Below, one piece after another: positions 453 through 26,412 of a stretch of DNA of 43,508 nt (position 1 is its first letter; each line of letters opens with the position of its first letter). Source of the stretch: Buchananella hordeovulneris (lineage in GTDB: Bacteria; Actinomycetota; Actinomycetes; Actinomycetales; Actinomycetaceae); the NCBI GenBank assembly GCA_030529545.1, contig JAUMWR010000007.1:1-43508 (forward strand), given 5' to 3'. Both the position numbers and the translations under genes were made by a program. The notes beneath the pieces are model-generated. The model saw only the letters and a list, made by a program, of their open reading frames with translations. It ran no database searches and was not told where the DNA came from.

Positions 453-887
453 TTCTGCCTATCGCCGGTAACCGGGCGGCTGCATAAAATCGGCCCGGCG
501 TGGAAACGTCGTCCACCCCGCAAGCGCTAATCCCGCTCCACCAACCGGAGATTGCGCTCGCTTAGAACTCGCAGTGCCACAGTAAGCACCCTCATTAACC
601 GTGCCCCGCACCACACCGCCCCACCGAATAGGGGCACAGTGCCAAAAATCACCACTGCCCCCGTTGCCCGATTTCTGGCCCAAAACTACCTCCACGCAAC
701 GCCTTCCCGCGCATCTCACACACCCACAATCCGTGCCGGTGTGTCCTGCCCTTAGGCTGCAAACGCAGTTCGTGCCTACCCTTCTGCGCCGGAAACTCAG
801 CCGTATAAACGCATTTGCGTGCGGCTGATGGCGGGTCAAATTCCTCCACCGGCCGGAAGTCCGTGCCCGATTACTACTGGAGACAAA
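453..887. other. Non-coding gap upstream of the adhesin gene
   Basis: About 435 bases without a credible gene. Open frames here lack family resemblance and Shine-Dalgarno support. The segment presumably carries the adhesin promoter, but no convincing -35/-10 pair stood out. A ribosome-binding site, GGAG at 879-882, sits five bases before the adhesin ATG. A minus-strand near-match to the recurrent CGACGTTSCCG word lies near 503-512. Confidence 0.5.
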
Positions 888-3800
888 ATGAAGCATTCCC
901 ATAAGTACAGATGGGGGAAGCCGGCGGCGGTACTAACCGCAACCGCGCTGACTCTGTCTGGGCTAGCCATTGGCGTGCACTCTGTGGCGCTCGCAGAGGA
1001 AGACCCCGCCGCCATCGAGGCTCCCGCCGAAGCGGGGACCTCCGCAACCAATTCGGTAGAGGCGGCAGGGCCCGCTGACAACTCTGAAACGGCTGCGCCT
1101 GCAGCAAGCGAGCACGTCCCCAGTGCGCCCGAAACCGAGCCGGTTGCGCCCGCCCCCGTACCGATTGTCACCGAGACCGAGAACGCAGGCGCGTCGGGCG
1201 GGGGCTCGGCTACGCCCCCTGCCAACTCTCACAACTCCAACAGCGGGCAGCCGGGGCTGGTGGCCCCAGTCAACCCCGGCCCCATCACCGGCCTGGTGGT
1301 GAACATCAGCCGCGACGGTACCGATACTTTCGACGCCAACAACGACCCCGGTAACGACGCGGGCGCCCAAAACGGCATCGTGCGTGTGAACGACACGGTC
1401 ACCTACGAGGTAAACGTCAACAGTGGCAACACCGCCGCAGTCAACCCCACCTTCACCATCCGTTTCCCCAAGGGCATGGAGATCACGGAGCTGCCCGGCA
1501 TGTGCCGCAAGGACGGGTCCTCGATCGTGCCCGCTACCGCCGGCTCTCCGCGCCTGCCATTGACGAACGACTCCATCAACGAGCTCGAAGAGCAGGTCCT
1601 CACCTGCAACCTGGGCTCCTTTGACCCCAACAAGTCGGTCAAGTACTTCGTCACCGCCAAGGTGGTAAACCTGGCCAAGCAGGGCCAGCAGCTCCCACTG
1701 CTCGCCGCCTCCATGACCTCCGACGGACAGGCGAGCCCGGTTACCTCTCCCACCCTGCCCACCGTGACGGCCTCCGCCGCGCTGCGCTGGGACATCTCCA
1801 AGAACGGCATCTCCCAGGTGGAAGACACGGGCTACGTCTACGGCCCGGCGGCCGAGGTCTGCCCGTGGGACACCAAGCGCCTCTGCTTTATCACCACCTA
1901 CCCGCTGCTGCTTTCCGCACCGGCAAACGGTAAGGGCGCGATGCCCGCCATCGGTGACATCACTGTGATGGACGACGTCAGCCCCGAGCGCCTTTACCCC
2001 CACCTGTCCGCCGAGCAGATCGCGCTGATCAAGGCCGACCTCAACAAGTACGGCACCCGCGTGGAGGTTTCCGACGCGAACTACAACATCCCCGGCACCA
2101 AGGCCGGCACGCGCGTCAACGGCGTGGACTACACCATCACCAACTCGGTACGCGACTCCGGCACGCTGCGGGTGGAGCAGGCCGGCCCCGGCCAGCCCGC
2201 CAAGTTCACCATCAGCGGCGCCGACATGACTCTGCGGACGGTTCCGCGCACTGTTACGCGCCCCGTGGGTGGGGCTCTGCCCGCCAACGTCGCCTACGCG
2301 GTCTCCCGCACCTTCAACGTTTACACCCCCGTGGACGTGGTGCGCGACTTCGGTTCCCCCGACAACGAGGCCAACCCGAGCGAGTGGACCCTCCAGACCC
2401 GCAACACCTTCACCGACCTGAAGATCGGCGGTTTCGACGGCACGGTGCAGGCACCGGATGTCCAGCCCACCACGAACGACTACCGCACCACGATCTCCCG
2501 GGTCACGGTGAATGGAGACTTCAGTAAGTACTTTGCTGGTTCCCCCGCCGCGCCCGGCAACATGACGCCGCGGCAATTCAACCCGCCGTGGGCCTCCCTT
2601 GGTGAGGGCATGCCGGGTGGTTCCACCTTGGGCTCCGGTACCGCCAACGTAGCGCGCGGCCAGGAGATCATCTCGATGCTGCTCCTGCGCGGTGCCCCCA
2701 TTACCTACCCCGTGGGCAAGTCCTTCGTGGCCTGCGACTCCTGGGACAACTCGCTGCTGCACCTGAAGGTAAAGGACTGGCCGGCCTCCCCCACTGCGGA
2801 GGCCCAGTACATCGGCTCCAACGGCCCCAAGGCCGTGTGGCTCTCCGGTTACAACAACGTCCCTAACGCGGCCAACACCGACGCCGTGTGGACCACCGAT
2901 GCTTCGCTCGTACCGCAGATCCGCGTGCAGTACTCCGCAGTCAAGGGCGGCAGCGGTAACGCCTCCATCTGTGACGACACCACCGGCCCCTGGTACAACA
3001 CCCCGGCCGAGGTGCCTGGCAACGATGCCACTAAGGCTGCCCAGGGCATCTACACCGGTGTGGCTCGCGTTCGCGTCCACACCTACCTGCCGGCGCCGGT
3101 GAATAGCTTCCGCAAGATCGGTAACGGATACGCGGCGGCGGTCTCGATCGGTATGGAGATCGCAGACACCACCCAGCCCGATGGGACCGTGATCCCGAAC
3201 TGGGCTGCCGTCAAGCGCGTCACCAACCAAGAACTGGATATGGACGGCGTCTTGAGCGCCCGCAGCGCTGGATGGGGCAAGTCCTCCTACACCCCGGGCG
3301 ACTCCATTTCCGCCCCGCGCAGCCACGTCGGTAACCCCGGCGACCGGGTGATTCTCTCCGGGCCGCAGGCACGCATCGCCAAGAGCGTGCGCGTGGTCAA
3401 CCAGGATGCTGACGCTACCCAGAGCGACTTCACCAAGGTTACGCCCGTGGTATCCGGGGACCCGGCCGCGAAAAAGAACCTCATTGAGTACGAGCTCCGC
3501 CCCAGCCTCATCTCCGGGGCACTGACCCCGGGGCAGCACAGCGATCTGGTCCTGGAGGACTGCATGCCCTCCGGCGTGAACTTCGTTTCCGCCAACATTG
3601 CCCCGATGTACGTCGGTGCCTCCAAGCCCGGCGATTGGGGTAGCCGGGACTGTGACGCCAACGAGACCTGGATCCGGTGGTTCCTGCCCCACCAGCAGGT
3701 CAACTCCGCACTGACCCCGATCCTGGTCCGCGCGCAGGTTTCCCCGACCGCTGCGGATGGTGTTTACCGCAACGACGTAGTGGTCTCCGCCCCCGGGGAC

Positions 3801-6800
3801 AACTCGCTGGTGTCGTTCCGCTCTGACGCTGTAGAGGTGCAGATCAACAACCCCGCCGGCGTTTACATCGAGAAGAAGGCGCTGACTCCGGTACTGCAGG
3901 TCAACGCCGCAAACTCCGAGCACGTCGAGCTCAACAAGTGGCGGGTGGCGCTAACCAACACGCTGCCCTCTACCGACGCGAGCGACCTATCCAACGTGGA
4001 CTTCATCGACGTGCTGCCGCGCCGGGGACTCGCCGGTAACTCCACCAGCCACTCCGGTACCTTCGAGTTCCATTCCGCCCGAGAGCTGCTTGGCGACAAC
4101 ACGGTGCAGATTCTGTACACCAAGGCCGCCGACGTGGCAGTCGTGGTGGCAGATCCGTCCAACGGCGCCAACGGGTCCACCGCTTGGTGCGATGCGCCCG
4201 CCGGCGGCACTCGGGTCTCCGGCACCGGTGACTGCCCGGCCACCGCAGCCGAGGTCACTGGGCTGCGGGTCAAGCGGCCTGGCAGGTTTTCTACTAAGGG
4301 ATCGGTGCAGATCGAGCTGTCTATGCTCGCCAGGGGGAACGTCAAGGGCGACACCTACCAGAACTTCGCCGCGGGCCGCGTGGATGGGCTGAGGCTGCCA
4401 GTTGGCCCGGTCAACGCCACGGAAACCGCCATCGCTTCCTCGCTTGGCAACTTCGTGTGGGAGGACCGCAACGGCAACGGCGTGCAGGACACCGCTGAAC
4501 CGGGCGTGTCTGGCGTGAAGGTGACCTTGACTGGTACTGACGACCTGGGCAACCCGGTTAACCTCAGCACCACCACCGACGGAGATGGCCACTACTCCTT
4601 CCCGGCTCTGCGGGCCTCCAGCCCGGAGGGTTACTCCGTGAAGTTCGAGCTCACTGCCGAACAAAAGGCAAACAAGTACGAGTTCACGGGTACCAAGATG
4701 GGGCTCGACACGGAAAAGGACTCGGACGCCGACGCTGCCGGCATGGTCACCGGTGTGGTGATCGGCCGTAACATGGACGATCAGTCCATCGACGCCGGTA
4801 TCGCCAAGCCATCCATCGCCCTGGTGAAGTCCGCTAACAAGCAGACGGTGCGGGCCGGTGACGTGGTTACCTACACCTTCACCGCCACCAACAACGGTTC
4901 CACCACCCTCAAGGACGTGGTGCTGACCGACACCGCCTTTACCAACGGTAAGGGCCAGACCATTGAGTTCGATGCCGCTCCGGCCGTCGACGCGGCCCAA
5001 TCCACGGGTGCCATCGACAACATGCCCGTTGGCTCCACCATCGTGTGGACCGCCACCTACACGGTCAAGGCCGAAGACCTCGAGGAGAACACCTCCATCG
5101 ACAACACGGCTAACGTCACCGCCAAGTCTCCCCGCGAGACCCCGGTGCGCGACGAGGACAACGAGAAGCTCACGCCTTTCGGCTCAGGGTCCTACGTGTT
5201 CTCCAAGACCGCTAACCCCGCCAAGGGAGCCAAGGTGCTGGTCGGCGACACGATCGTCTACACCATCACCGTCAAGCACCGCGGCGAGCTGGCAGTCAAG
5301 GGTGCCACCCTCACCGACGACCTCTCCGCCGTCCTGGACGACGCCGACTACCTAAACGACGTCTCCGCCACCTCCGGTACGGCCACGATCACGGGCAACA
5401 CCCTGAACTGGAACGGCAACCTGGCAGTGGGCGCCACCGCCACCATCACCTACTCCGTCAAGGCCAAGAAGGGTGGGGACATGGCGTTGCGCAACGTCGT
5501 CACCACCACCAACGCCAAGGGCAGCTGTGATGACACCGTTGGTTGCGAGACCAACCACAACATTGAGCCTGGCACGTTCGTCTTCCACAAGACGGCTGCT
5601 CCCGCCGCCGGCGAGACCGTCAACGTGGGCGACACGGTCCAGTACACGGTGACGGTCGAGCACGAAAAGGGCTCCGCCATCGACAACGCGACCCTGACCG
5701 ACGACCTGGCTGCCGTGCTGGATGACGCCACCCTGGTGGACAACAGCGTCAGAGCCACCATCGGTGACGCCCAGGTGAACGCTGGCAAGCTCACCTGGAC
5801 CGGTGATCTGGCCGTCGGTGCCACCGCCACCATCACCTACTCCGTGCGAGTGGGCTCCGAGGGCGATGGCCAGCTGCGTAACACCGTGACCACCACCCAC
5901 GACAAGGGCAGGTGCAAGCCGCAGCAGGTGTGTGAGACCAGCCACCAGGTTCAGCCTGGCAAGTTCGTCTTCTCCAAGACCGCTGACGCCGCCACCGGCT
6001 CTGTGGTCAAGGTGGGCCAGACGGTGAAGTACACCGTCGCCATTGAGCACGCCTCCGGTACCAAGGTGAAGAACGCGGTTGTCACCGACGACCTCAGTGC
6101 CGTCTTGGACGACGCCACCTACCTGAACGACGTGGAGGCCAGCGCTGGTCAGGCCACTGTGGCCAACGGCCAGCTGACCTGGACCGGCGACATTCCGGTC
6201 GGTGCCAAGATCACCGTCACCTACTCCGTGCGAGTGGGCTCCGAGGGCGATGGCACCCTGCGCAACGTCGTCACCACCACCGGCGACAGCGGTAGCTGCA
6301 AGCCGGCGCAGGTGTGCGAGACCAACCACCAGGTCGAGCCGGGCAAGTTCGTCTACTACAAGACCTCCGCCCCGGCTGTTGGCGCGACCGTCAACGTGGG
6401 AGACACGGTTCGCTACACGGTGACAATCGCCCACGCCTCCGGTACCAAGGTCAAGAACGCCACGGTGGTTGACAACATGGCCGCCGTCCTGGACGACGCC
6501 GAGTACCTCAACGACGTGCAGGCCAGCGCTGGTCAGGCCACTGTGGCTAACGGCCGCCTGACCTGGACGGGCGACATCCCCGTGGGAGAGACCATCATCG
6601 TCACCTACTCCGTGCGGGTGGGCTCTGCGGGCGATGGCACCCTGCGCAACGTGGTCACCTCTCCGAATGACAGCGGTAGCTGCAAGCCGGCGCAGGTGTG
6701 CGAGACCAACCACCAGGTCAAGGACGGTACCTTCACCTTCTCCAAGACCAGCGACCCGGTGAAGGGGGACACCCCGCCGGTAGCAGTTGGCTCTCAGATC

Positions 6801-7667
6801 GAGTACACCGTCACGATCAAGCACGCTGACGGCACCAAGATCAAGGGCGCGGTCGTCACCGACGATCTGTCTGCGGTCCTGGACGACGCCACCCTGGTTG
6901 AGGGCTCCGTTACCGCCTCCGCAGGCAACGCCCACGTAGCCGGTAACACCCTCACCTGGACCGGCGACATCCCCGTCGGTGCCACGATCACCGTCAAGTA
7001 CAAGGTCACCGTGGGCTCTGCGGGCGATGGCACCCTGCGTAACGTGGTCACCTCCAACACCCCCGGCGGCTCCTGCGACGCCACCGTGGGTTGCGAGACC
7101 AACCACCAGGTAGAGCCCGGCAAGTTCGTGTTCTCCAAGGTCGCTAACCCTGCCAACGGTGCGGAGGTGAGGGCCGGGGACAAGGTGGTCTACACCCTGA
7201 CTGTCCGCCACACCTCCGGAACCCGCATCGACGATGCCCGCATCGTCGACGACCTGGCCAAGGTGCTGGACGACGCCACCTACAACGAGGACGTCGAGGC
7301 CAGCGACGGTAAGGCAGAGGTGAAGGACGGCAAGCTGACCTGGGAGGGCAAGCTCGCAGTTGGTGGCAAGGTCACCATCACCTTCAGCGTGACCGTCAAG
7401 GACGGCGGCGACAACAAGCTGCTCAACGTGGTGGTTTCCGACCACCCGCAGGGCGCTTGTGACGACGCCGTCGGCTGCCAGGTGGAGCACCCCAAGAAGC
7501 CGCCGGTACCGGGCCAGCCCCCGGTGCCCGGCAAGCCGGATAAGCCTGGCAAGGTGGGCAAGCTGCCCAAGACCGGTGCTGCAGTATTCGCTACCAGCGC
7601 CAGCGCCCTCACCCTGATGGCCCTGGGTGGAGCGTTCGTGCTGCTGCGCCGCCGCCGCAACTCCTAG
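888..7667 (+). CDS. Large LPKTG-anchored surface adhesin with six tandem DUF11-like repeats
   Basis: Secreted 2259-residue protein predicted to be sortase-linked to peptidoglycan. The start at 888 is chosen because GGAG precedes it by five bases and it opens a classic signal peptide (MKHSHKYRWGKPAAVLTATA..., cleavage after ALA near residue 36-38). An acidic Ala/Pro linker follows, then ~1100 residues of non-repetitive ectodomain, an SdrD B/Cna-B-like module (about 1184-1305, GNFVWEDRNGNGVQD), a DUF11 module (about 1307-1430), six near-identical ~128-residue repeats (about 1434-2202), a Pro/Gly/Lys wall spacer, LPKTG at 2226-2230, a membrane segment and an RRRR tail. Each repeat ends with two cysteines about seven residues apart. 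The architecture suggests a long stalk adhesin; the ligand is unknown. It is flanked by structured non-coding elements and a strong terminator. Confidence 0.9.
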   Translation: MKHSHKYRWGKPAAVLTATALTLSGLAIGVHSVALAEEDPAAIEAPAEAGTSATNSVEAAGPADNSETAAPAASEHVPSAPETEPVAPAPVPIVTETENAGASGGGSATPPANSHNSNSGQPGLVAPVNPGPITGLVVNISRDGTDTFDANNDPGNDAGAQNGIVRVNDTVTYEVNVNSGNTAAVNPTFTIRFPKGMEITELPGMCRKDGSSIVPATAGSPRLPLTNDSINELEEQVLTCNLGSFDPNKSVKYFVTAKVVNLAKQGQQLPLLAASMTSDGQASPVTSPTLPTVTASAALRWDISKNGISQVEDTGYVYGPAAEVCPWDTKRLCFITTYPLLLSAPANGKGAMPAIGDITVMDDVSPERLYPHLSAEQIALIKADLNKYGTRVEVSDANYNIPGTKAGTRVNGVDYTITNSVRDSGTLRVEQAGPGQPAKFTISGADMTLRTVPRTVTRPVGGALPANVAYAVSRTFNVYTPVDVVRDFGSPDNEANPSEWTLQTRNTFTDLKIGGFDGTVQAPDVQPTTNDYRTTISRVTVNGDFSKYFAGSPAAPGNMTPRQFNPPWASLGEGMPGGSTLGSGTANVARGQEIISMLLLRGAPITYPVGKSFVACDSWDNSLLHLKVKDWPASPTAEAQYIGSNGPKAVWLSGYNNVPNAANTDAVWTTDASLVPQIRVQYSAVKGGSGNASICDDTTGPWYNTPAEVPGNDATKAAQGIYTGVARVRVHTYLPAPVNSFRKIGNGYAAAVSIGMEIADTTQPDGTVIPNWAAVKRVTNQELDMDGVLSARSAGWGKSSYTPGDSISAPRSHVGNPGDRVILSGPQARIAKSVRVVNQDADATQSDFTKVTPVVSGDPAAKKNLIEYELRPSLISGALTPGQHSDLVLEDCMPSGVNFVSANIAPMYVGASKPGDWGSRDCDANETWIRWFLPHQQVNSALTPILVRAQVSPTAADGVYRNDVVVSAPGDNSLVSFRSDAVEVQINNPAGVYIEKKALTPVLQVNAANSEHVELNKWRVALTNTLPSTDASDLSNVDFIDVLPRRGLAGNSTSHSGTFEFHSARELLGDNTVQILYTKAADVAVVVADPSNGANGSTAWCDAPAGGTRVSGTGDCPATAAEVTGLRVKRPGRFSTKGSVQIELSMLARGNVKGDTYQNFAAGRVDGLRLPVGPVNATETAIASSLGNFVWEDRNGNGVQDTAEPGVSGVKVTLTGTDDLGNPVNLSTTTDGDGHYSFPALRASSPEGYSVKFELTAEQKANKYEFTGTKMGLDTEKDSDADAAGMVTGVVIGRNMDDQSIDAGIAKPSIALVKSANKQTVRAGDVVTYTFTATNNGSTTLKDVVLTDTAFTNGKGQTIEFDAAPAVDAAQSTGAIDNMPVGSTIVWTATYTVKAEDLEENTSIDNTANVTAKSPRETPVRDEDNEKLTPFGSGSYVFSKTANPAKGAKVLVGDTIVYTITVKHRGELAVKGATLTDDLSAVLDDADYLNDVSATSGTATITGNTLNWNGNLAVGATATITYSVKAKKGGDMALRNVVTTTNAKGSCDDTVGCETNHNIEPGTFVFHKTAAPAAGETVNVGDTVQYTVTVEHEKGSAIDNATLTDDLAAVLDDATLVDNSVRATIGDAQVNAGKLTWTGDLAVGATATITYSVRVGSEGDGQLRNTVTTTHDKGRCKPQQVCETSHQVQPGKFVFSKTADAATGSVVKVGQTVKYTVAIEHASGTKVKNAVVTDDLSAVLDDATYLNDVEASAGQATVANGQLTWTGDIPVGAKITVTYSVRVGSEGDGTLRNVVTTTGDSGSCKPAQVCETNHQVEPGKFVYYKTSAPAVGATVNVGDTVRYTVTIAHASGTKVKNATVVDNMAAVLDDAEYLNDVQASAGQATVANGRLTWTGDIPVGETIIVTYSVRVGSAGDGTLRNVVTSPNDSGSCKPAQVCETNHQVKDGTFTFSKTSDPVKGDTPPVAVGSQIEYTVTIKHADGTKIKGAVVTDDLSAVLDDATLVEGSVTASAGNAHVAGNTLTWTGDIPVGATITVKYKVTVGSAGDGTLRNVVTSNTPGGSCDATVGCETNHQVEPGKFVFSKVANPANGAEVRAGDKVVYTLTVRHTSGTRIDDARIVDDLAKVLDDATYNEDVEASDGKAEVKDGKLTWEGKLAVGGKVTITFSVTVKDGGDNKLLNVVVSDHPQGACDDAVGCQVEHPKKPPVPGQPPVPGKPDKPGKVGKLPKTGAAVFATSASALTLMALGGAFVLLRRRRNS
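5187..7491 (+). repeat. Six tandem ~128-codon repeats within the adhesin gene
   Basis: Repeat units begin at 5187, 5571, 5958, 6342, 6726 and 7119, spaced 384, 387, 384, 384 and 393 bases. Each starts with G-x-F/Y-x-F/Y-x-K and contains a (D/N)(D/N)xAxVLDDA core, a (L/I)(A/P)VG turn and a C-x6/7-C-E/Q end. Units 3 and 4 share long identical stretches of DNA, which points to recent duplication or gene conversion. Copy number is therefore likely to vary between strains. Confidence 0.9.
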
Positions 7668-7682
7668 GCACTGCCCTAGCCT

Positions 7683-7762
7683 GGGGGTAGGGCGCTCACG
7701 GTGCCCCCTCAAAGGCCACCAGGCCCAGGCACTTGCCTAGCCGGGTGAGGTGCCCTACCCCC
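7683..7762 (+). other. Long stem-loop in the adhesin 3' UTR
   Basis: Arms 7683-7699 (GGGGGTAGGGCGCTCAC) and 7745-7762 pair over ~17 bp with one irregularity, enclosing about 45 bases. It lies between the adhesin stop and the intrinsic terminator, so it would form in the mRNA 3' UTR. It may stabilise the long transcript; that role is inference. Confidence 0.5.
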
Positions 7763-7768
7763 TGCGGC

Positions 7769-7810
7769 AAGAAAGCCGCCGCTCTCAAAAGAGCGGCGGC
7801 TTTCTTGTTT
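7769..7810 (+). terminator. Strong intrinsic terminator after the adhesin gene
   Basis: A perfect 16 bp stem (7769-7784 with 7791-7806) with a six-base loop is followed by GTTTTGCC. It lies between the plus-strand adhesin and the convergent minus-strand DUF3145 gene. The stem is closed by A-T pairs on both sides, so it may stop both transcripts. Confidence 0.9.
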
Positions 7811-7900
7811 TGCCGGGCGCTGGCCTTCCCGCCGGGCGCTGGCCACGCTGTATGCCCGCTAGGCCGGCTACCGCGCCTGCGTCGGGACCACAGTTGCCCC

Positions 7901-8529: not shown

Positions 8530-9027
8530 CTACCAGCCCATCGAGCGGATTGCCTTCATGGCCTTGCGGCGCTCGTTGCCCTTGAGGAGGTCGATGTAAA
8601 GCTTGCCGATCAGGTGATCGCATTCGTGCTGCAGGCAGCGGGCCATGAGCTCCTCGCCCTCCACGACGATCTCCTTGCCGTCCAGGTTCACCCCGCGTAC
8701 CCGCGCGTACCAGGCGCGCTCGGTGGGATAGTAGAGCCCCGGCACGGACAGGCAGCCCTCGTCGCCGTCCTGGATGTACTCCTCCATGGAGGCCTCCTCC
8801 AGGACGGGGTTGAGCACGTAGCCGATCTCGCCGTTGATGTTCCAGGAGAACGCGCGCAGACCCACGCCGATCTGGTTGGCGGCCAGGCCGGCGCGCCCGT
8901 CCATGTCAACGGTCTCGAGCAGGTCCTCCACCAGGCCGCGCACGCGCACGTCCTTGACGTCCTTGATCACCTCGCATTCGGTACGCAGGATCGGGTCGCC
9001 AATGATGCGGATGTCACGGATAGCCAT
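8530..9027 (-). CDS. def: Peptide deformylase
   Basis: Removes the N-formyl group from the initiator Met of nascent proteins; a cytosolic Fe2+/Zn2+ metalloenzyme. All three family motifs are visible in the 165-residue product: GLAANQIG (motif I), EGCLSVPG (motif II, metal-binding Cys) and QHECDHLIG (motif III, the HExxH metal-binding and catalytic element). Length is normal for actinobacterial type I enzymes. Its ATG shares one base with the proS stop, so translation is probably coupled. Context (proS upstream, DUF3145 downstream) fits a translation-related operon end. Confidence 0.97.
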
Positions 9028-10853
9028 CAGCCCTGCGCCCCCGCGTGACCGGCCTCGGCGCGGGCGGCCTCCACGGCTGCCTTCAACTCGGCGACGGCGT
9101 CTGCCACCGGCACGGCGCGGGCCTCACCGGTGCGGCGGTTGCGCAGTTCCACCTGGCCCTCGGCAAGACCGCGGCCCACCACCAACACGAAGGGCACCCC
9201 GATCAGCTCGGAGTCGGCGAACTTCACCCCGGCGCTGACCTTCACGCGGTCGTCGTAGAGGACCTCGACGCCGGCCTCGCTGGCCTCGCCCGCGATCTGC
9301 GCGGCGGTGGAGAAGATCTCCTCGCCCTTGCCGGTGGCCAGCACCAGGGCCTCGTAGGGGGCCACGTGGATGGGCCAGGCCAGGCCAGCCTCGTCGTGGT
9401 AGTTCTCCGCCAAAGCGGCCAGGGCGCGGGTGACGCCAATGCCGTAGGAGCCCATGGTCACCACGGTGGCCTTGCCGTTCTGGTCTAGCACGGTCAAGTC
9501 CAGGGCCTTGGCGTACTTGCGGCCCAGCTGGAAGATGTGGCCGATCTCGATGCCGCGGGCCAGCTCCAGGGGGCCGGAGCCGTCCGGGGCCGGGTCGCCC
9601 TCGAGCACCTCTGCGGCCTCGATGAAGCCGTCGGCGGTGAAGTCGCGGCCCGCCACCAGGCCCACCACGTGGGTGTCCTGCTGGTTGGCGCCGCTGACCC
9701 AGACGGTTCCCTCCACCACGCGCGGGTCGAGCAGGTAGCGCACAGAGCCGGAGGCGTTGCCGGCCTCATCCACTACGCGGTGCGGGGAGTTGGGGCCGAG
9801 CACCTGCGGGCCAATGTAGCCAACCACCAGCTCGGGGTGCTTGGCCAGGTCGGACTCGCTGGCCTGCTCCACGCTGTTGGGGCTCAGGGCCGCCTCGATG
9901 CGCGCCAGGTCGATACCCCGGTCGCCGGGCAGGCCAACCACGATCACCTCGCGCTCGCCGGCGGGCGAGATCACGGTCAGGGCAATGTTCTTCAGGGTCG
10001 CGCCGGCGGTCCAACCGCCCTCTACTGGCTCGTGCTCGTCCAGGTAGGCAACCAGGTCCTCGATGGAGGCGGCGCCCGGGGTGGGGACCGCGCGGGGGGC
10101 CGGGGCGTCGCTATAGTCCAGGGCCTCGGGTACGACGGTGGTGACGGCCTCGACGTTGGCGGCGTACCCGCCGGGAGAGCGCACGTAGGTGTCCTCACCG
10201 ATCTCGCACGGGTGCAGGAACTCCTCGGAGCGAGAGCCGCCCATGGCGCCGCTCATGGCGGAGACGATCACGTACTCCAAACCCAGGCGGGTGAAGATGG
10301 CCTTGTAGGCCTCGCGTTGGGCGTCGTAGGAGGCGTCCAGGCCGGCGTCGTCGATGTCGAAGGAGTAGGCGTCCTTCATGACGAACTCGCGGCCGCGCAG
10401 CAGACCGGCGCGCGGGCGGGCCTCGTCACGGTACTTGGTCTGGATCTGGTACAGGGTGACCGGCAGGTCCTTGTAGGAGGAGTAGAGGTCCTTGACCAGG
10501 AGGGTGAACATTTCCTCGTGGGTGGGGGCCAGCAGGTAGTCGTTCTCGCGGCGGTCCTTTAGGCGGAAAAGGTTGGGGCCGTACTCGCTCCAGCGGCCGG
10601 TGGCCTCGTAGGGTTCGCGCGGCAGCAGGGCCGGGAAGTGTACTTCCTGCGCACCGGCGCGGCGCATTTCCTGGCGCACGATCTCCTCGATCTTGCCCAG
10701 CACGCGCAGGCCCAGCGGCAGCCAGGTGTAGATGCCGGGGGCGGAGCGGCGGATGTAGCCGGCGCGTACCAGCAGCTTGTGGCTGGCCACTTCGGCGTGT
10801 GCGGGGTCCTCGCGCAGGGTGCGCAGGAATAGGGAGCTCATCAGGTCAAGCAC
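9027..10853 (-). CDS. proS: Prolyl-tRNA synthetase, bacterial type with editing insertion
   Basis: Charges tRNA-Pro with proline in the cytosol. The 608-residue product is the bacterial (ProS type 1) form: class II catalytic core at the N terminus ([12 protein letters not shown], motif 2 with [10 protein letters not shown]), an INS/YbaK-like editing insertion around residues 225-405, motif 3 [11 protein letters not shown], and an anticodon-binding C-terminal domain. The GTG at 10853 is chosen because GAGGG sits about six to eight bases upstream; the internal ATG four codons later is the alternative and matches the usual [10 protein letters not shown] start, but it is too far from that ribosome site. 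The stop overlaps the def start by one base. Confidence 0.96.
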
Positions 10854-10883
10854 GGCAAACCCTCTTACGTAGACGATTTGCCC

Positions 10884-10889
10884 ATTTTA
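10884..10889 (-). promoter_or_regulatory. Possible -10 box for proS
   Basis: TAAAAT on the minus strand, about 30 bases before the proS GTG. The -35 region is unconvincing, so this is a weak call based on -10 similarity and position. The same hexamer precedes ffh at a similar distance. Confidence 0.3.
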
Positions 10890-11000
10890 CTCGCCGCGCC
10901 GGGGTTGACGGCGCGCGCCTTTGTGCGGCCCATCGCATTGGACGACGCTCCCGCCGCCGTGCCGCGCGCTCGCCTGCTCCCAGTGGCGGCCCGCCTGCCG

Positions 11001-11208
11001 ATCCACCTCTACCGCGCGCGGGGCGGACTGCCCCAGCGGTGGCCACCGACCGGCTCAGCAATCCACCTCTACCGCGCGCGGGGCGGACCGTGTTGGGCGA
11101 CGCGCTGGCGGGGTTTCGGGTGAGCCTCTGCTGCGCTCGGGGCGGACCGAGGTGGGGGTCATTGGGCGAGTTGTTCCCTCCCCACCGCTGCCGCACACGG
11201 CGACGGAC
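11001..11208. repeat. Four-copy 28 bp repeat array with 31-32 bp unique spacers (CRISPR-like remnant)
   Basis: Two identical 28 bp copies (11001-11028, 11061-11088) are followed by two diverged copies (11120-11147, 11180-11208). The spacers are 32, 31 and 32 bases and unrelated to one another. On the minus strand a copy starts GTCCGCCCCGCGCGCGG, resembling the GTnnnCCCCGCGC start of type I-E repeats. No cas gene is in the window and half the copies are decayed, so it may be a dead array or another interspersed repeat. Confidence 0.55.
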
Positions 11209-11268
11209 CTGGACCTAGCCGCACACCGCCCCACCGTTTGAGGGCGGCGCGCGGCAACGTCGGCCAGA

Positions 11269-12444
<1,176 letters not shown>

Positions 12445-23217: not shown

Positions 23218-24390
23218 TTAGTTCGCCCGGGTCCAGCGCGGCGGGTGGGTGGCGGCGCGCCGCACCCGCCCCGCCATCTCCAGCAGCGCCAGGGCGGTCT
23301 CGGTTTCGTCGGCGGCGAGCGCGGCGCGTTTGGCTATCTGTTCCAGCGGGGCGCTGGCGCGCAGCGGCAGCGCGTCCAGCACCATCCGCCCGGTGGCGTC
23401 CAGGCCGTCGAGCAACTGATCGTCCGGGGAGGGGGCCTGCTCCCCCAGCTCCCAGGCCAGGGCGGGCAGGAGCTCCAGGACCTCCGGGGCGCTGGTGACC
23501 AGGGTGGCGCCGTCGCGGATGAGGCGGTGGCAGCCGGCCGACTGCTGGGAGGTGGCCGGGCCGGGCACGGCGCCCACGCTCCGGCCCAGGTTCACCGCGT
23601 GGGTGGCGGTGTTCAGCGCCCCGGAGCGCACGGCGGCCTCCGCTACCACGGTGGCCCCGGCGCAGGCGATCAGCCTGTTTCGTTGCAGGAAGCGCACGCG
23701 GGAGGGCACCGCGCCCGGCGGCATCTCGCTCACCACCGCCCCGTGCTCGGCCACCTCCTGCAGGAGGTCGGCGTTGCCGGCCGGGTAAAGCCGGTCCACC
23801 CCGCCGGCCAGGAAGGCGACCGTGTTGCCGTCTGCGGCCAGGGCCGCCCGGTGCACGCAGGCGTCGATGCCGTAGGCGCCCCCGGAGACGGCCACGAGCC
23901 CGGGCTGCTGCCTGCACAGCTCCAGGGTCAGGTCTCGGGCCACCCGCTCTCCGTAGCCGGTGGCGGCCCGGGCGCCCACTAGCGCCACGGAAAGCTGGGA
24001 GTGCAACAGGCCGGCCTCTCCCCGCACCCACAGCCCCAGCGGCGCGGCGCTGCCCAGGTCTAGGAACTGGCTGGGATACCCCTCCTGCCCACGGTAGAAG
24101 AAGCTGGCGCCGAGCAGTTCCAGGGCGCGCAGGTCACGCTCCACCCACCGCTGCGGGTCCTCCCCCGCCAGGCGCGTGCGCCAGCGGGTCAGGGCGCGCT
24201 CCCACTGGACCGGGGTGGCGGCCGACGTGAGCGCGGCGGCCTCCTGGCCGCTCACGCCGCCGGCCACCAGCTCGAACGCGCGCCGAAAGCCGCAAGCGGC
24301 TACGAGCGTGGCCGCCGCCTGATCCCCGGGCTCGCTCGCTCTGCCCCACACCAGGGCTGCTTCGCGCTCGCTAGGCGGTAACCATTGCAT
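23218..24390 (-). CDS. dprA: DNA-processing protein DprA
   Basis: Loads RecA on incoming single-stranded DNA during natural transformation; widely kept even in non-competent bacteria. The 390-residue product has the Rossmann-like core with LSVALVGARAATGYG, VSGGAYGIDACVHRAAL, LAGGVDRLYPAGN, VRFLQRNRLIA and AAVRSGALNTATHA, then a C-terminal winged-helix region (DATGRMVLDAL...LEMAGRVRR). SGGAYGID replaces the more usual SGLARGID. Its ATG overlaps the comM end by 20 bases. The 211-base gap to xerC has GC-rich inverted repeats but no clear terminator. Confidence 0.93.
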   Translation of the reverse strand: MQWLPPSEREAALVWGRASEPGDQAAATLVAACGFRRAFELVAGGVSGQEAAALTSAATPVQWERALTRWRTRLAGEDPQRWVERDLRALELLGASFFYRGQEGYPSQFLDLGSAAPLGLWVRGEAGLLHSQLSVALVGARAATGYGERVARDLTLELCRQQPGLVAVSGGAYGIDACVHRAALAADGNTVAFLAGGVDRLYPAGNADLLQEVAEHGAVVSEMPPGAVPSRVRFLQRNRLIACAGATVVAEAAVRSGALNTATHAVNLGRSVGAVPGPATSQQSAGCHRLIRDGATLVTSAPEVLELLPALAWELGEQAPSPDDQLLDGLDATGRMVLDALPLRASAPLEQIAKRAALAADETETALALLEMAGRVRRAATHPPRWTRAN

Positions 24391-26026
24391 CGCTCACTCC
24401 CATCTTCAGCAGGTAGGCCTTGCCCAAGTGCTCGCCCTCCACGCGCGGGCTACCGGCCAGGTCCGCCAGGGTCCAGGCCACGCGCAGAATGCGATCCACC
24501 GCGCGCAGTGACGTCTCACCCCGCTCCAGCCAGCTAGTGATGGCGCGGGTGGTGGCGGTGGACAGGCCACCGGCGGGTGAGCGCAGGACGTCCCCCGGCA
24601 CCTGCGAGTTCAGCTCCCACGGGTAGTCCCGCCACCTGGCCCGGGCCCGTTCCCGGGCGGCGAGCACTCGCGCGGCCACCACGGCGCTGGACTCGGGCGC
24701 TCGGGCCCGCAGGTCAACGGCGGTGACCGGCTCCACGTTCACGCTCAGGTCGATCCGGTCCAGGAGCGGCCCGGAGAGGCGGGCCATGTAGCGCCGGCGG
24801 GCCATGGGGGTGCAGGTGCACTGCTTGCGCCGGGAGTATGCGTTGCCGCAGGGGCAGGGGTTGGCTGCCAACACCAGTTGGAAGCGGGCCGGGTAGGTGG
24901 CTGTGCCGGCCGAGCGGTGCAGGGTGACGCTGCCGGATTCCATCGGCTGGCGCAGGCAGTCCAGCACCCGGGCGGCGAACTCCGGGGCCTCGTCCAGGAA
25001 GAGGACGCCGGCGTGGGCCAGGGAGACCGCACCGGGCCGGGGCAGGCCGGAGCCCCCGCCTAGGATCGCCGGCAGGGTGGCGGTGTGGTGGGGCGCCTGG
25101 AAGGGTGGGGTGCTCAGCAGCCGCGGCGCCCCGAGCCTCCCGGCAAGCGAGTGCAGGGCGGTGGCGTCCAGGACGTCCTGCCCCGTCAGGGGCGGCATGA
25201 TGCCGGGCAGGCGCTCGGCCAGCATGGTTTTGCCCGCGCCCGGACTGCCCACCAGCAGCAGGTGATGCCCGCCGGCGGCGGCCACCTCCAGCGCCAGCCG
25301 CGCCGTCTTTTGCCCCACCACCTCCGCCAGATCCGGTGCTCCCGGCACGCTGGCTACTCTGGCGCCCGCGCCCGACGCGCCGGAGACGCCCGCGCCCACA
25401 ACGTCAACCGCACCAGCCGCCCCGGCCTCCTCAGTCTTCTCTGCCCCGGCCGCAGCACCTACCTGCCCGCTGCCCTCCTGCGGGGTTTCTGCCCGCAGGG
25501 GCCGGCCCTTGGGGCGCCCGCCGTAGTGGGTGGCCACGTCCGCCAGGTGCTCCATGGCGATCACCTCCACGCCGGGCAGCAGCCCGGCCTCCTGGGCGTT
25601 GCCGACGGGGACCATGACCTTGTGGAAGCCGTGGGAGAGCGCGGCGCGCACTGCGGGCAGCACGCCGCGCACCGGCAGCAGGCGCCCGTCCAGCCCCACC
25701 TCCCCCAGGTGGACCACATCCCGGGCGCGGTCCAGGCGCACCAGCCCCTGGGAGCCCAGCATGGCCACCGCGAGCGCCAGGTCGAAAGCTGTGCCGGCCT
25801 TGGGTAGCCCGGCCGGGGAGAGGTTGACGGTGGTGCGCATTTCCTTCCACCCGATTCGGATGGAGGCGATCGCGGCGCGCACGCGCTCCTTGGCCTCCCG
25901 CAGGGCGGCGTCGGGGAGCCCGACTAGGGTAACGGCGGGCAGCCCGGAGGTGGATTGCGCCTCTACGTCCACCACGTGCCCGTCGAGTCCCACCAGGCAG
26001 ATGGAACGGGTGAATGCGAGGGCCAT
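24371..26026 (-). CDS. comM: ComM/YifB-type AAA+ helicase-like ATPase (Mg-chelatase family)
   Basis: Hexameric AAA+ protein that in competent bacteria drives branch migration of transforming DNA. The 551-residue product has the ChlI N-terminal domain (MALAFTRSICLVGLDGHVVD..., NLSPAGLPKAGTAFDLA), a ~60-residue Ala/Gly/Glu low-complexity linker near 265-325, Walker A GSPGAGKTMLAERLPG, Walker B GVLFLDEAPEF, a cysteine cluster NPCPCGNAY...QCTC and sensor motifs (SGPLLDRIDL). The linker is longer than in ComM of Gram-negatives. ATG at 26026 overlaps the yraN stop by one base; dprA follows with a 20-base overlap. The comM-dprA-xerC grouping is conserved in actinobacteria. Confidence 0.93.
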   Translation of the reverse strand: MALAFTRSICLVGLDGHVVDVEAQSTSGLPAVTLVGLPDAALREAKERVRAAIASIRIGWKEMRTTVNLSPAGLPKAGTAFDLALAVAMLGSQGLVRLDRARDVVHLGEVGLDGRLLPVRGVLPAVRAALSHGFHKVMVPVGNAQEAGLLPGVEVIAMEHLADVATHYGGRPKGRPLRAETPQEGSGQVGAAAGAEKTEEAGAAGAVDVVGAGVSGASGAGARVASVPGAPDLAEVVGQKTARLALEVAAAGGHHLLLVGSPGAGKTMLAERLPGIMPPLTGQDVLDATALHSLAGRLGAPRLLSTPPFQAPHHTATLPAILGGGSGLPRPGAVSLAHAGVLFLDEAPEFAARVLDCLRQPMESGSVTLHRSAGTATYPARFQLVLAANPCPCGNAYSRRKQCTCTPMARRRYMARLSGPLLDRIDLSVNVEPVTAVDLRARAPESSAVVAARVLAARERARARWRDYPWELNSQVPGDVLRSPAGGLSTATTRAITSWLERGETSLRAVDRILRVAWTLADLAGSPRVEGEHLGKAYLLKMGVSDAMVTA

Positions 26027-26412
26027 CAGTAGCCCACCCCCTCCAGGTGCGTGACCAGCGCGGGCCCGCCGGGGATCACCTCGACCTCGATGACGTCTAT
26101 GCGCAGGGTGGCAAACGTGCGCTGCTGTTGGGCTAGCCAGGAGCGGGCCAGGGAGCGCAGCCGCAGGTACTTGGTTTTGGTGACGGCGCCGGCGGGCCGT
26201 CCGCACGCGCCGGTTGCGCGGGTCTTGACCTCCACGAACACCACCGCGTCCTGGGCGGGGTCGTAGGCGATGACGTCTAGCTCGCCGCGCTTGCCGTCGC
26301 GCCAGTTGCGGCCTAGGAGTTGCATGCCCTGCCCGAGCAGCGCTCTGCACGCGATTTCTTCTCCCCTGCGCCCCAGGCGCTGCCGGTGGGCGGGGTCGGT
26401 TTTCTCTGCCAT
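26026..26412 (-). CDS. YraN/UPF0102 family nuclease-fold protein
   Basis: A 128-residue protein of UPF0102, a restriction-endonuclease-like fold often next to rnhB and comM. It contains LGRRGEEIACRALLGQG, GELDVIAYD and VVFVEVKTR, the residues expected of the PD-(D/E)xK metal site. The ATG at 26412 is chosen because it opens the conserved RQRLGRRGEE segment, with GGAG about ten bases upstream; the longer open frame lacks family similarity. Precise function unknown; an accessory DNA-repair or recombination role is inferred from fold and neighbours. Confidence 0.88.
   Translation of the reverse strand: MAEKTDPAHRQRLGRRGEEIACRALLGQGMQLLGRNWRDGKRGELDVIAYDPAQDAVVFVEVKTRATGACGRPAGAVTKTKYLRLRSLARSWLAQQQRTFATLRIDVIEVEVIPGGPALVTHLEGVGY

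What the first reader, a model, noticed from the sequence alone, without database searches (positions are those of the whole stretch)
11001..11208. Decayed CRISPR-like array with no cas genes nearby
Four copies of a 28 bp repeat with spacers of 32, 31 and 32 bases. The first two repeats are identical, the last two diverged, and the spacers are unrelated. Period and repeat length match type I-E, and the minus-strand repeat begins like I-E repeats. Tandem duplication would give similar spacers, which is not seen. It lies in the non-coding gap between proS and ispG.
Basis: partly seen in the sequence, partly recalled or inferred. Interest (0 to 1): 0.55.

Follow-up and report, generated by a model that had tools for sequence, protein, structure and literature searches.

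The report
Stray CRISPR array beside proS
A short run of repeats between two housekeeping genes looks like a CRISPR array born by accident, when the cell's own CRISPR-writing enzyme inserted DNA snippets at a wrong place, and the same kind of mark appears at other places in this genome.

Summary
The repeats are real: R1 and R2 are identical over exactly 28 bp (60 bp apart), R3 is diverged (59 bp on), R4 is weak. The block lies in the 415-bp ispG-proS gap; relative G001 lacks it. It does not look like a relic of the resident array: the genome has a type I-E system on another contig (cas11-7-5-6-1-2; 106 repeats, period 61), but its repeat is about as close to R1 as GC-rich chance allows, and the R repeat occurs nowhere else.

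New result: elsewhere in the genome lie other short direct repeats, each locus with its own sequence, about 28 bp, sharp-ended, 61 bp apart, with about 33 bp of unrelated DNA between. In 1.12 Mb (53% of the genome) 6 of 12 near-exact short duplications sit at exactly 61 bp and 2 (this locus and one more) at 60. In 985 kb of contigs without a previously known case there are 8 loose matches at 61 against a mean of 0.8 at 16 other spacings. Three relatives without Cas1e: 0 of 15.

That is the footprint expected of off-target type I-E Cas1-Cas2 integration (28-bp duplication, 33-bp insert). Best reading: a small array seeded by misplaced spacer integration, now decaying. Main doubt: spacing here is 60/59, not 61.

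The parts
10854..11268 (.). Non-coding gap between ispG and proS (415 bp, 72.5% GC)
   Evidence: Flanking genes by Pfam; 377 bp of it are replaced by 39 bp in G001
11001..11028 (+). Repeat R1
   Evidence: 28/28 identical to R2, sharp ends
11029..11060 (+). Insert 1 (32 bp)
   Evidence: No counterpart among the held 1.1 Mb of the genome beyond chance; none in phages, plasmids, IMG/VR
11061..11088 (+). Repeat R2
   Evidence: 28/28 identical to R1
11089..11124 (+). Insert 2 (31 bp; 11089-11119 in the R1 register, about 11094-11124 in the register where R2 and R3 match best)
   Evidence: 11091-11127 resembles own contig C61:51-87 at 86% over 37 bp
11120..11152 (+). Repeat R3, diverged (21/28 at 11120, 23/28 at 11125)
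   Evidence: 0 of 5,000 shuffles reach 21/28; registers
11153..11181 (+). Insert 3 (about 33 bp, counted from 11148 in the R1 register)
   Evidence: Unrelated to inserts 1 and 2
11182..11208 (+). Repeat R4, weak, needs a 1-nt gap
   Evidence: 21 of 27 columns, shuffle p = 0.0036
9027..10853 (-). proS (prolyl-tRNA synthetase)
   Evidence: Pfam
11269..12444 (-). ispG (GcpE)
   Evidence: Pfam
7654..7742 (+). Second, much weaker candidate of the same geometry in the window: 7654-7681 against 7715-7742, 21/28 at exactly 61 bp, just behind the end of a surface-protein gene
   Evidence: about one such match per other spacing is expected by chance in 1.1 Mb

Best explanation
A small array born in place by misplaced (off-target) spacer integration. 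The resident type I-E Cas1-Cas2 integrase, encoded on contig C46, inserted a 32-33 bp DNA fragment into the ispG-proS gap instead of into its own array. The staggered reaction duplicates 28 bp of the target on either side of the insert, giving repeat-insert-repeat. Further rounds at the same site added more units; the newest pair (R1/R2) is still identical and the older copies (R3, R4) have decayed. The repeats are local target sequence, so they differ from locus to locus, while the geometry (28 + 33) is constant. Shown here: the exact 28-bp duplication, the one-sided decay, open cas1e and cas2e genes in the same genome, and a genome-wide excess of unrelated duplications at exactly 61 bp. Inferred: that Cas1-Cas2 made them, that this 60/59-bp locus belongs to the class, and the order of events. 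Nothing suggests that the array works in immunity; most likely it is neutral debris.
For: R1/R2 28 bp exact with unrelated inserts. Cas1e and Cas2e with open frames beside a 106-repeat array of period 61. Near-exact 24-36 bp duplications in 1,115,233 bases: 6 of 12 at 61 and 2 at 60; in 985,493 bases of contigs without a prior case 3 of 7 at 61, 1 at 60, and 8 loose matches at 61 against a mean of 0.81 at 16 other spacings; in the last 324 kb, taken as a fresh test, the only near-exact case is at 61. G001 (Cas1e 93% identical): 1 of 11 at 61 and 1 at 60 in 400 kb. Relatives without Cas1e: 0 of 15 at 60-62 in 600 kb. C37:16076, found by accident, 26/27 at 61. Target sites resemble the canonical repeat slightly beyond composition (mean 14.3 against 13.1 of 28, p 0.003-0.006). 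The C84 insert matches C26:25343-25375 at 30/33 with borders at the insert ends.
Against: Spacing here is 60 and 59; the resident array has only 61, 62 and 63. No protospacer found for inserts 1-3. Empty sites could not be read because non-coding DNA of G001 is too diverged. G005 has an 80% identical Cas1e but no off-array case in 200 kb. The first 395 kb sampled showed one clear 61-bp case and no obvious peak. The 30/33 self-match of C84 is not clean: 3 of 40 random 33-mers nearby find 29 or more. Insert 2 overlaps a dispersed element of the genome, which ordinary non-coding turnover could also explain.
Confidence: 0.6

Rival explanations
1. Ordinary fast-evolving non-coding repeats: a locus-specific direct repeat in a gap partly built from dispersed elements, with CRISPR-like spacing by coincidence.
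For: The gap holds two copies of a genome-wide 16-bp motif and a stretch resembling a dispersed element; spacing is 60/59 and not 61; 60 is also a spacing that coding repeats use.
Against: Identity of R1 and R2 is exactly 28 bp with sharp ends and unrelated inserts; in the same genome near-exact duplications of this size pile up at 61 and 60 (8 of 12).
Confidence: 0.25
2. Relic of a genuine CRISPR array (of another subtype, or a former second I-E array) that lost its cas genes and decayed.
For: Four repeat copies with regular spacing and one-sided decay; 28/32 geometry.
Against: Repeat unlike the resident one, unique in the genome, no counterpart beyond chance in 200 family genomes; no cas gene among 28 window ORFs scanned; only one Cas1 in the genome; absent from G001 at the same place.
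Confidence: 0.1
3. A functional cis element: repeated hairpins or protein-binding sites in the ispG-proS transcript or the proS leader.
For: Both genes run on the minus strand through the gap; the gap as a whole folds better than its shuffles (z = -2.8).
Against: Absent from G001 although proS and ispG are 91-92% identical there; single repeats fold no better than chance (z from -1.6 to +0.2); no Rfam match in the window.
Confidence: 0.05

Closest known systems
Non-canonical (off-target) Cas1-Cas2 spacer integration in E. [quoted passage not shown] paper not held; cited in passages of PMC9456107 and PMC11788318)
   Same: Repeat-insert-repeat outside the array with the dimensions of I-E integration, at sites resembling the native repeat slightly more than expected
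   Different: Those experiments overexpressed Cas1-Cas2 (PMC11788318 passage); here the marks are natural, old, numerous, and one locus has several units. That paper's few natural candidates in other species are recalled by me, not read
Type I-E CRISPR array (resident one on contig C46)
   Same: 28-bp repeats, inserts of about 32-33 bp, decay towards one end
   Different: Different repeat, period 60/59, no adjacent cas genes, four repeats only
False-CRISPR elements (tandem repeats, STAR-like elements; PMC5294841, passages seen)
   Same: CRISPR-like look with no companion cas genes, GC-rich repeats
   Different: Those lack spacer diversity or spread one element over the genome; here inserts are unrelated and the repeat is unique

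Membership tests
Type I-E CRISPR array | Repeat of about 28-29 bp with regular unrelated spacers of 32-33 bp | tested here: met
   28 bp; inserts 32, 31, about 33; R4 weak
Type I-E CRISPR array | Repeat related to that of the genome's I-E system | tested here: not met
   13/28 in register, 15/28 best shift, within chance
Type I-E CRISPR array | Adjacent cas genes | tested here: not met
   0 cas among 28 window ORFs scanned; cas genes on C46
Type I-E CRISPR array | Spacers match mobile elements | tested here: not met
   Phages best E 0.06, listed plasmid rows E 0.7 or worse, IMG/VR 0 of 3 22-mers; most true spacers also lack matches
Type I-E CRISPR array | Transcribed and processed to crRNA | not testable with these tools
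   Needs RNA data
Off-target Cas1-Cas2 (I-E) integration product | Exact 28-bp target duplication with sharp ends | tested here: met
   R1/R2 28/28
Off-target Cas1-Cas2 (I-E) integration product | Insert of the length the resident integrase uses (period 61-63) | tested here: inconclusive
   Here 60 and 59; resident array 61 (99), 62 (5), 63 (1); other off-array cases mostly exactly 61
Off-target Cas1-Cas2 (I-E) integration product | Cas1e and Cas2e present in the genome | tested here: met
Off-target Cas1-Cas2 (I-E) integration product | Unrelated repeats with the same geometry elsewhere in the genome | tested here: met
   Ten further loci at 61 bp and one at 60
Off-target Cas1-Cas2 (I-E) integration product | Single-copy empty site in a close relative | tested here: inconclusive
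   G001 lacks the whole block; other sites not alignable
Off-target Cas1-Cas2 (I-E) integration product | Insert derived from a donor DNA elsewhere | tested here: inconclusive
   Insert 2 resembles C61:51-87; C84 insert 30/33 to C26, control not clean
False-CRISPR (tandem or STAR-like repeat) | Similar 'spacers', or one repeat spread over the genome | tested here: not met
   Inserts unrelated; repeat unique

The most novel reading that the evidence does not exclude
The type I-E integrase of this actinobacterial lineage misfires often enough that its chromosome carries a scattered natural record of ectopic spacer insertions (ten candidate loci at 61 bp and two at 60 in a little over half the genome), and the proS-ispG locus is one where repeated insertion has started a new multi-spacer array from chromosomal sequence alone: a CRISPR array caught at its birth.
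Probability: 0.5. Interest if true: 0.85.

Novelty: new member of a known kind. Interest (0 to 1): 0.68.

Why it matters
Where new CRISPR arrays come from, and how often the adaptation enzyme inserts DNA outside its array in nature, is largely open. A genome in which misplaced insertions can be read off by one number (61 bp) makes both questions countable: rates, target preference, insert origin and decay could be measured across strains. It also warns array finders that a short orphan array with a unique repeat may be the product of a distant cas locus and neither a relic nor a false positive.

Tried and rejected
Relic of the resident array: repeat similarity within chance. Dispersed repeat family: the R repeat is unique in the genome and shows only chance-like hits in 200 family genomes; a pattern scan of genome contigs gave 0 hits, but the window's own genome may be left out of that collection. 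Protospacer searches of the window block in phages, plasmids and IMG/VR: nothing; three other duplication loci against phages: best listed E 0.3-0.9. A profile of the dispersed GGGCGAC element did not find the window gap. RNA structure: no convincing hairpin per repeat. Empty-site alignments of C34:2048, C47:28216 and G001:15118 were not readable. Self-protospacers: of 14 inserts compared with the DNA held, only that of C84 stands out, and its control is not clean. Paper searches on the phenomenon: (listings seen); on a DNA-uptake motif in this group.

Selection of data, told in full: the 61-bp pattern was first seen in loci fetched because they carry dispersed repeats. Contigs C80, C84, C6 and C61, on which those cases lay, are inside the 1.12-Mb total, so the fair figure is the 985-kb one, which leaves out these four, the window contig and the array contig. 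Two of the 80 named ispG loci (L177, L181) show duplications at 62 bp, and loose matches at 62 there number four; I did not follow them. The single G014 match at 61 is an 82-bp imperfect tandem repeat. C80:18397 (37 bp exact at 60 bp) was left out of the class as too long.

Full report
What is there. The window is part of contig C40 of an unnamed 2.09-Mb genome. Between ispG and proS, both on the minus strand, lies a 415-bp gap of 72.5% GC. In it R1 and R2 are identical over exactly 28 bp, 60 bp apart; R3 follows at 59 bp (21/28, or 23/28 when shifted by 5 bp); R4 needs a one-base gap (21 of 27 columns, p = 0.0036) and is weak. The inserts are unrelated to each other.

Not the resident array. 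The genome has a type I-E system on contig C46: PADLOC names cas11e, cas7e, cas5e, cas6e, cas1e and cas2e, followed by 106 repeats with spacings of 61 (99 times), 62 (5) and 63 (1). The contig starts just upstream of cas11e; cas8e and cas3 were not searched for in the rest of the genome. The resident repeat shares 13/28 positions with R1 in register and 15/28 at the best shift; 148 of 5,000 random 28-mers of the window do as well or better. The 23-base core of R has no other copy in the genome at up to 3 mismatches. Of 200 genomes of the family, 13 including this one have any match, the others only scattered 3-mismatch hits, and the reversed-pattern controls give a similar number.

Relatives. 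G001, same genus, has proS and ispG at 91-92% identity but 39 bp where the window has 377. The block is therefore recent here or lost there; the non-coding DNA is too diverged to tell which.

The turn. A scan of own-genome loci for 24-bp direct repeats showed that non-array cases cluster at 59-61 bp, each with its own sequence and sharp ends. I then sampled contigs. In 791 kb the spacings from 30 to 200 that are not multiples of three gave 25 cases, eight of them at exactly 61 and no other spacing above two. In 324 kb more, taken as a fresh test, the only near-exact 24-36 bp duplication lay at 61. Over all 1,115,233 bases there are 12 near-exact duplications: six at 61, two at 60 (this locus and C34:2048), two at 43, one each at 81 and 93. 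Because some contigs were chosen after cases were known on them, the fair figure is the 985,493 bases without a prior case: 3 of 7 near-exact at 61 and one at 60, and 8 loose matches at 61 against a mean of 0.81 (maximum 3) at 16 other spacings. A further case, C37:16076 (26/27 at 61 bp), came up in DNA fetched for another reason. Against this, the first 395 kb alone showed one clear 61-bp case and no obvious peak.

Controls. G001, whose Cas1e is 93% identical, has 1 of 11 near-exact duplications at 61 (28 bp exact) and 1 at 60, and 5 loose matches at 61 against a mean of 0.63. G010, G011 and G014, with no Cas1e match, give 0 of 15 at 60-62 in 600 kb. Eighty named ispG loci of other actinobacteria (640 kb) give 0 of 6 at 60-61 and 2 at 62. 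G005, with an 80% identical Cas1e, shows none outside its own array in 200 kb, so the presence of Cas1e alone does not predict the pattern.

Reading. A direct duplication of about 28 bp around about 33 bp of other sequence, at unrelated sites and with the exact period of the resident array, is what off-target type I-E integration should leave. That I-E Cas1-Cas2 duplicates the repeat when it inserts a spacer is established knowledge; that it can insert outside the array in E. coli is cited in passages of PMC9456107 and PMC11788318, while the original paper was not readable here. Where reading frames could be judged, most blocks lie between genes or at gene ends, as expected if insertions into genes are lost; the C84 block lies inside a possible 266-codon frame. 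Target sites lean towards the canonical repeat (14.3 against 13.1 of 28, p 0.003-0.006). At C47:28216 the repeat carries CCCCG and CGGGG ends like the resident one, and what looks like a third, older copy lies upstream.

The proS locus. It fits by repeat length, sharp ends and unrelated inserts, and it is the clearest case with more than two repeats. It departs by spacing (60 and 59). In the register where R2 and R3 match best, insert 2 coincides with the stretch that resembles own contig C61:51-87 (86% over 37 bp); this may be a self-derived insert or simply shared dispersed DNA. Another locus gives a cleaner hint: the 33-bp insert at C84 matches C26:25343-25375 at 30/33 and the match ends at the insert borders, although 3 of 40 random nearby 33-mers also found matches of 29 or more. 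No protospacer for the window inserts was found in phages, plasmids or IMG/VR.

Verdict. I hold the genome-wide pattern to be real (about 0.85) and most simply explained by misplaced Cas1-Cas2 integration. That this locus is a product of it I put at 0.6; an ordinary local repeat remains at about a quarter. The kind of event is known; its abundance in a natural genome would be the surprise.

Noticed in passing
window 10940-10955 (+), 11250-11265 (-), 14861, 21465, 26859, 30745, 30871, 36711, 38446, 41426; whole genome: A 16-bp motif, GGMCGACGTTSCCGCC, occurs 375 times (up to 1 mismatch, both strands about equally; reversed-pattern control 0) in this genome and 311 times in G001, but 9 times in G002 and up to a few dozen in 36 other relatives. 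It lies in genes and gaps alike and recalls the DNA uptake sequences of Neisseria or Pasteurella (recalled); two inverted copies flank the repeat block. The window also codes for DprA (23218-24390) and a ComM-like Mg-chelatase protein (24371-26350).
   Followed up: partly
L003 (contig C61) 1-130, 4195-4350, 5950-6045 and dozens of other places: A dispersed intergenic palindromic element of about 120 bp, three direct GGGCGACAAGAAC-like units facing three inverted ones, period about 22, with 61 matches at E up to 1 in the genome, many at contig ends.
   Followed up: partly
G001:15118-15206 and G000:C37:16076-16163: The same intergenic gap carries a 28/33 duplication in both species, but with different sequences, as if the site were a hot spot for insertion.
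   Followed up: partly
L177:5915 (Aeromicrobium piscarium), L181:7702 (Nocardioidaceae MAG): Near-exact 26-bp duplications at 62-bp spacing in other actinobacteria; possibly the same process with another period.
   Followed up: no
window 819-7667 (+): A 2,282-aa surface protein with SdrD_B-like, DUF11 and DUF7927 repeat domains and an LPXTG anchor; downstream, near 7780-7830, an inverted repeat followed by a T-rich stretch looks like a terminator by eye.
   Followed up: no
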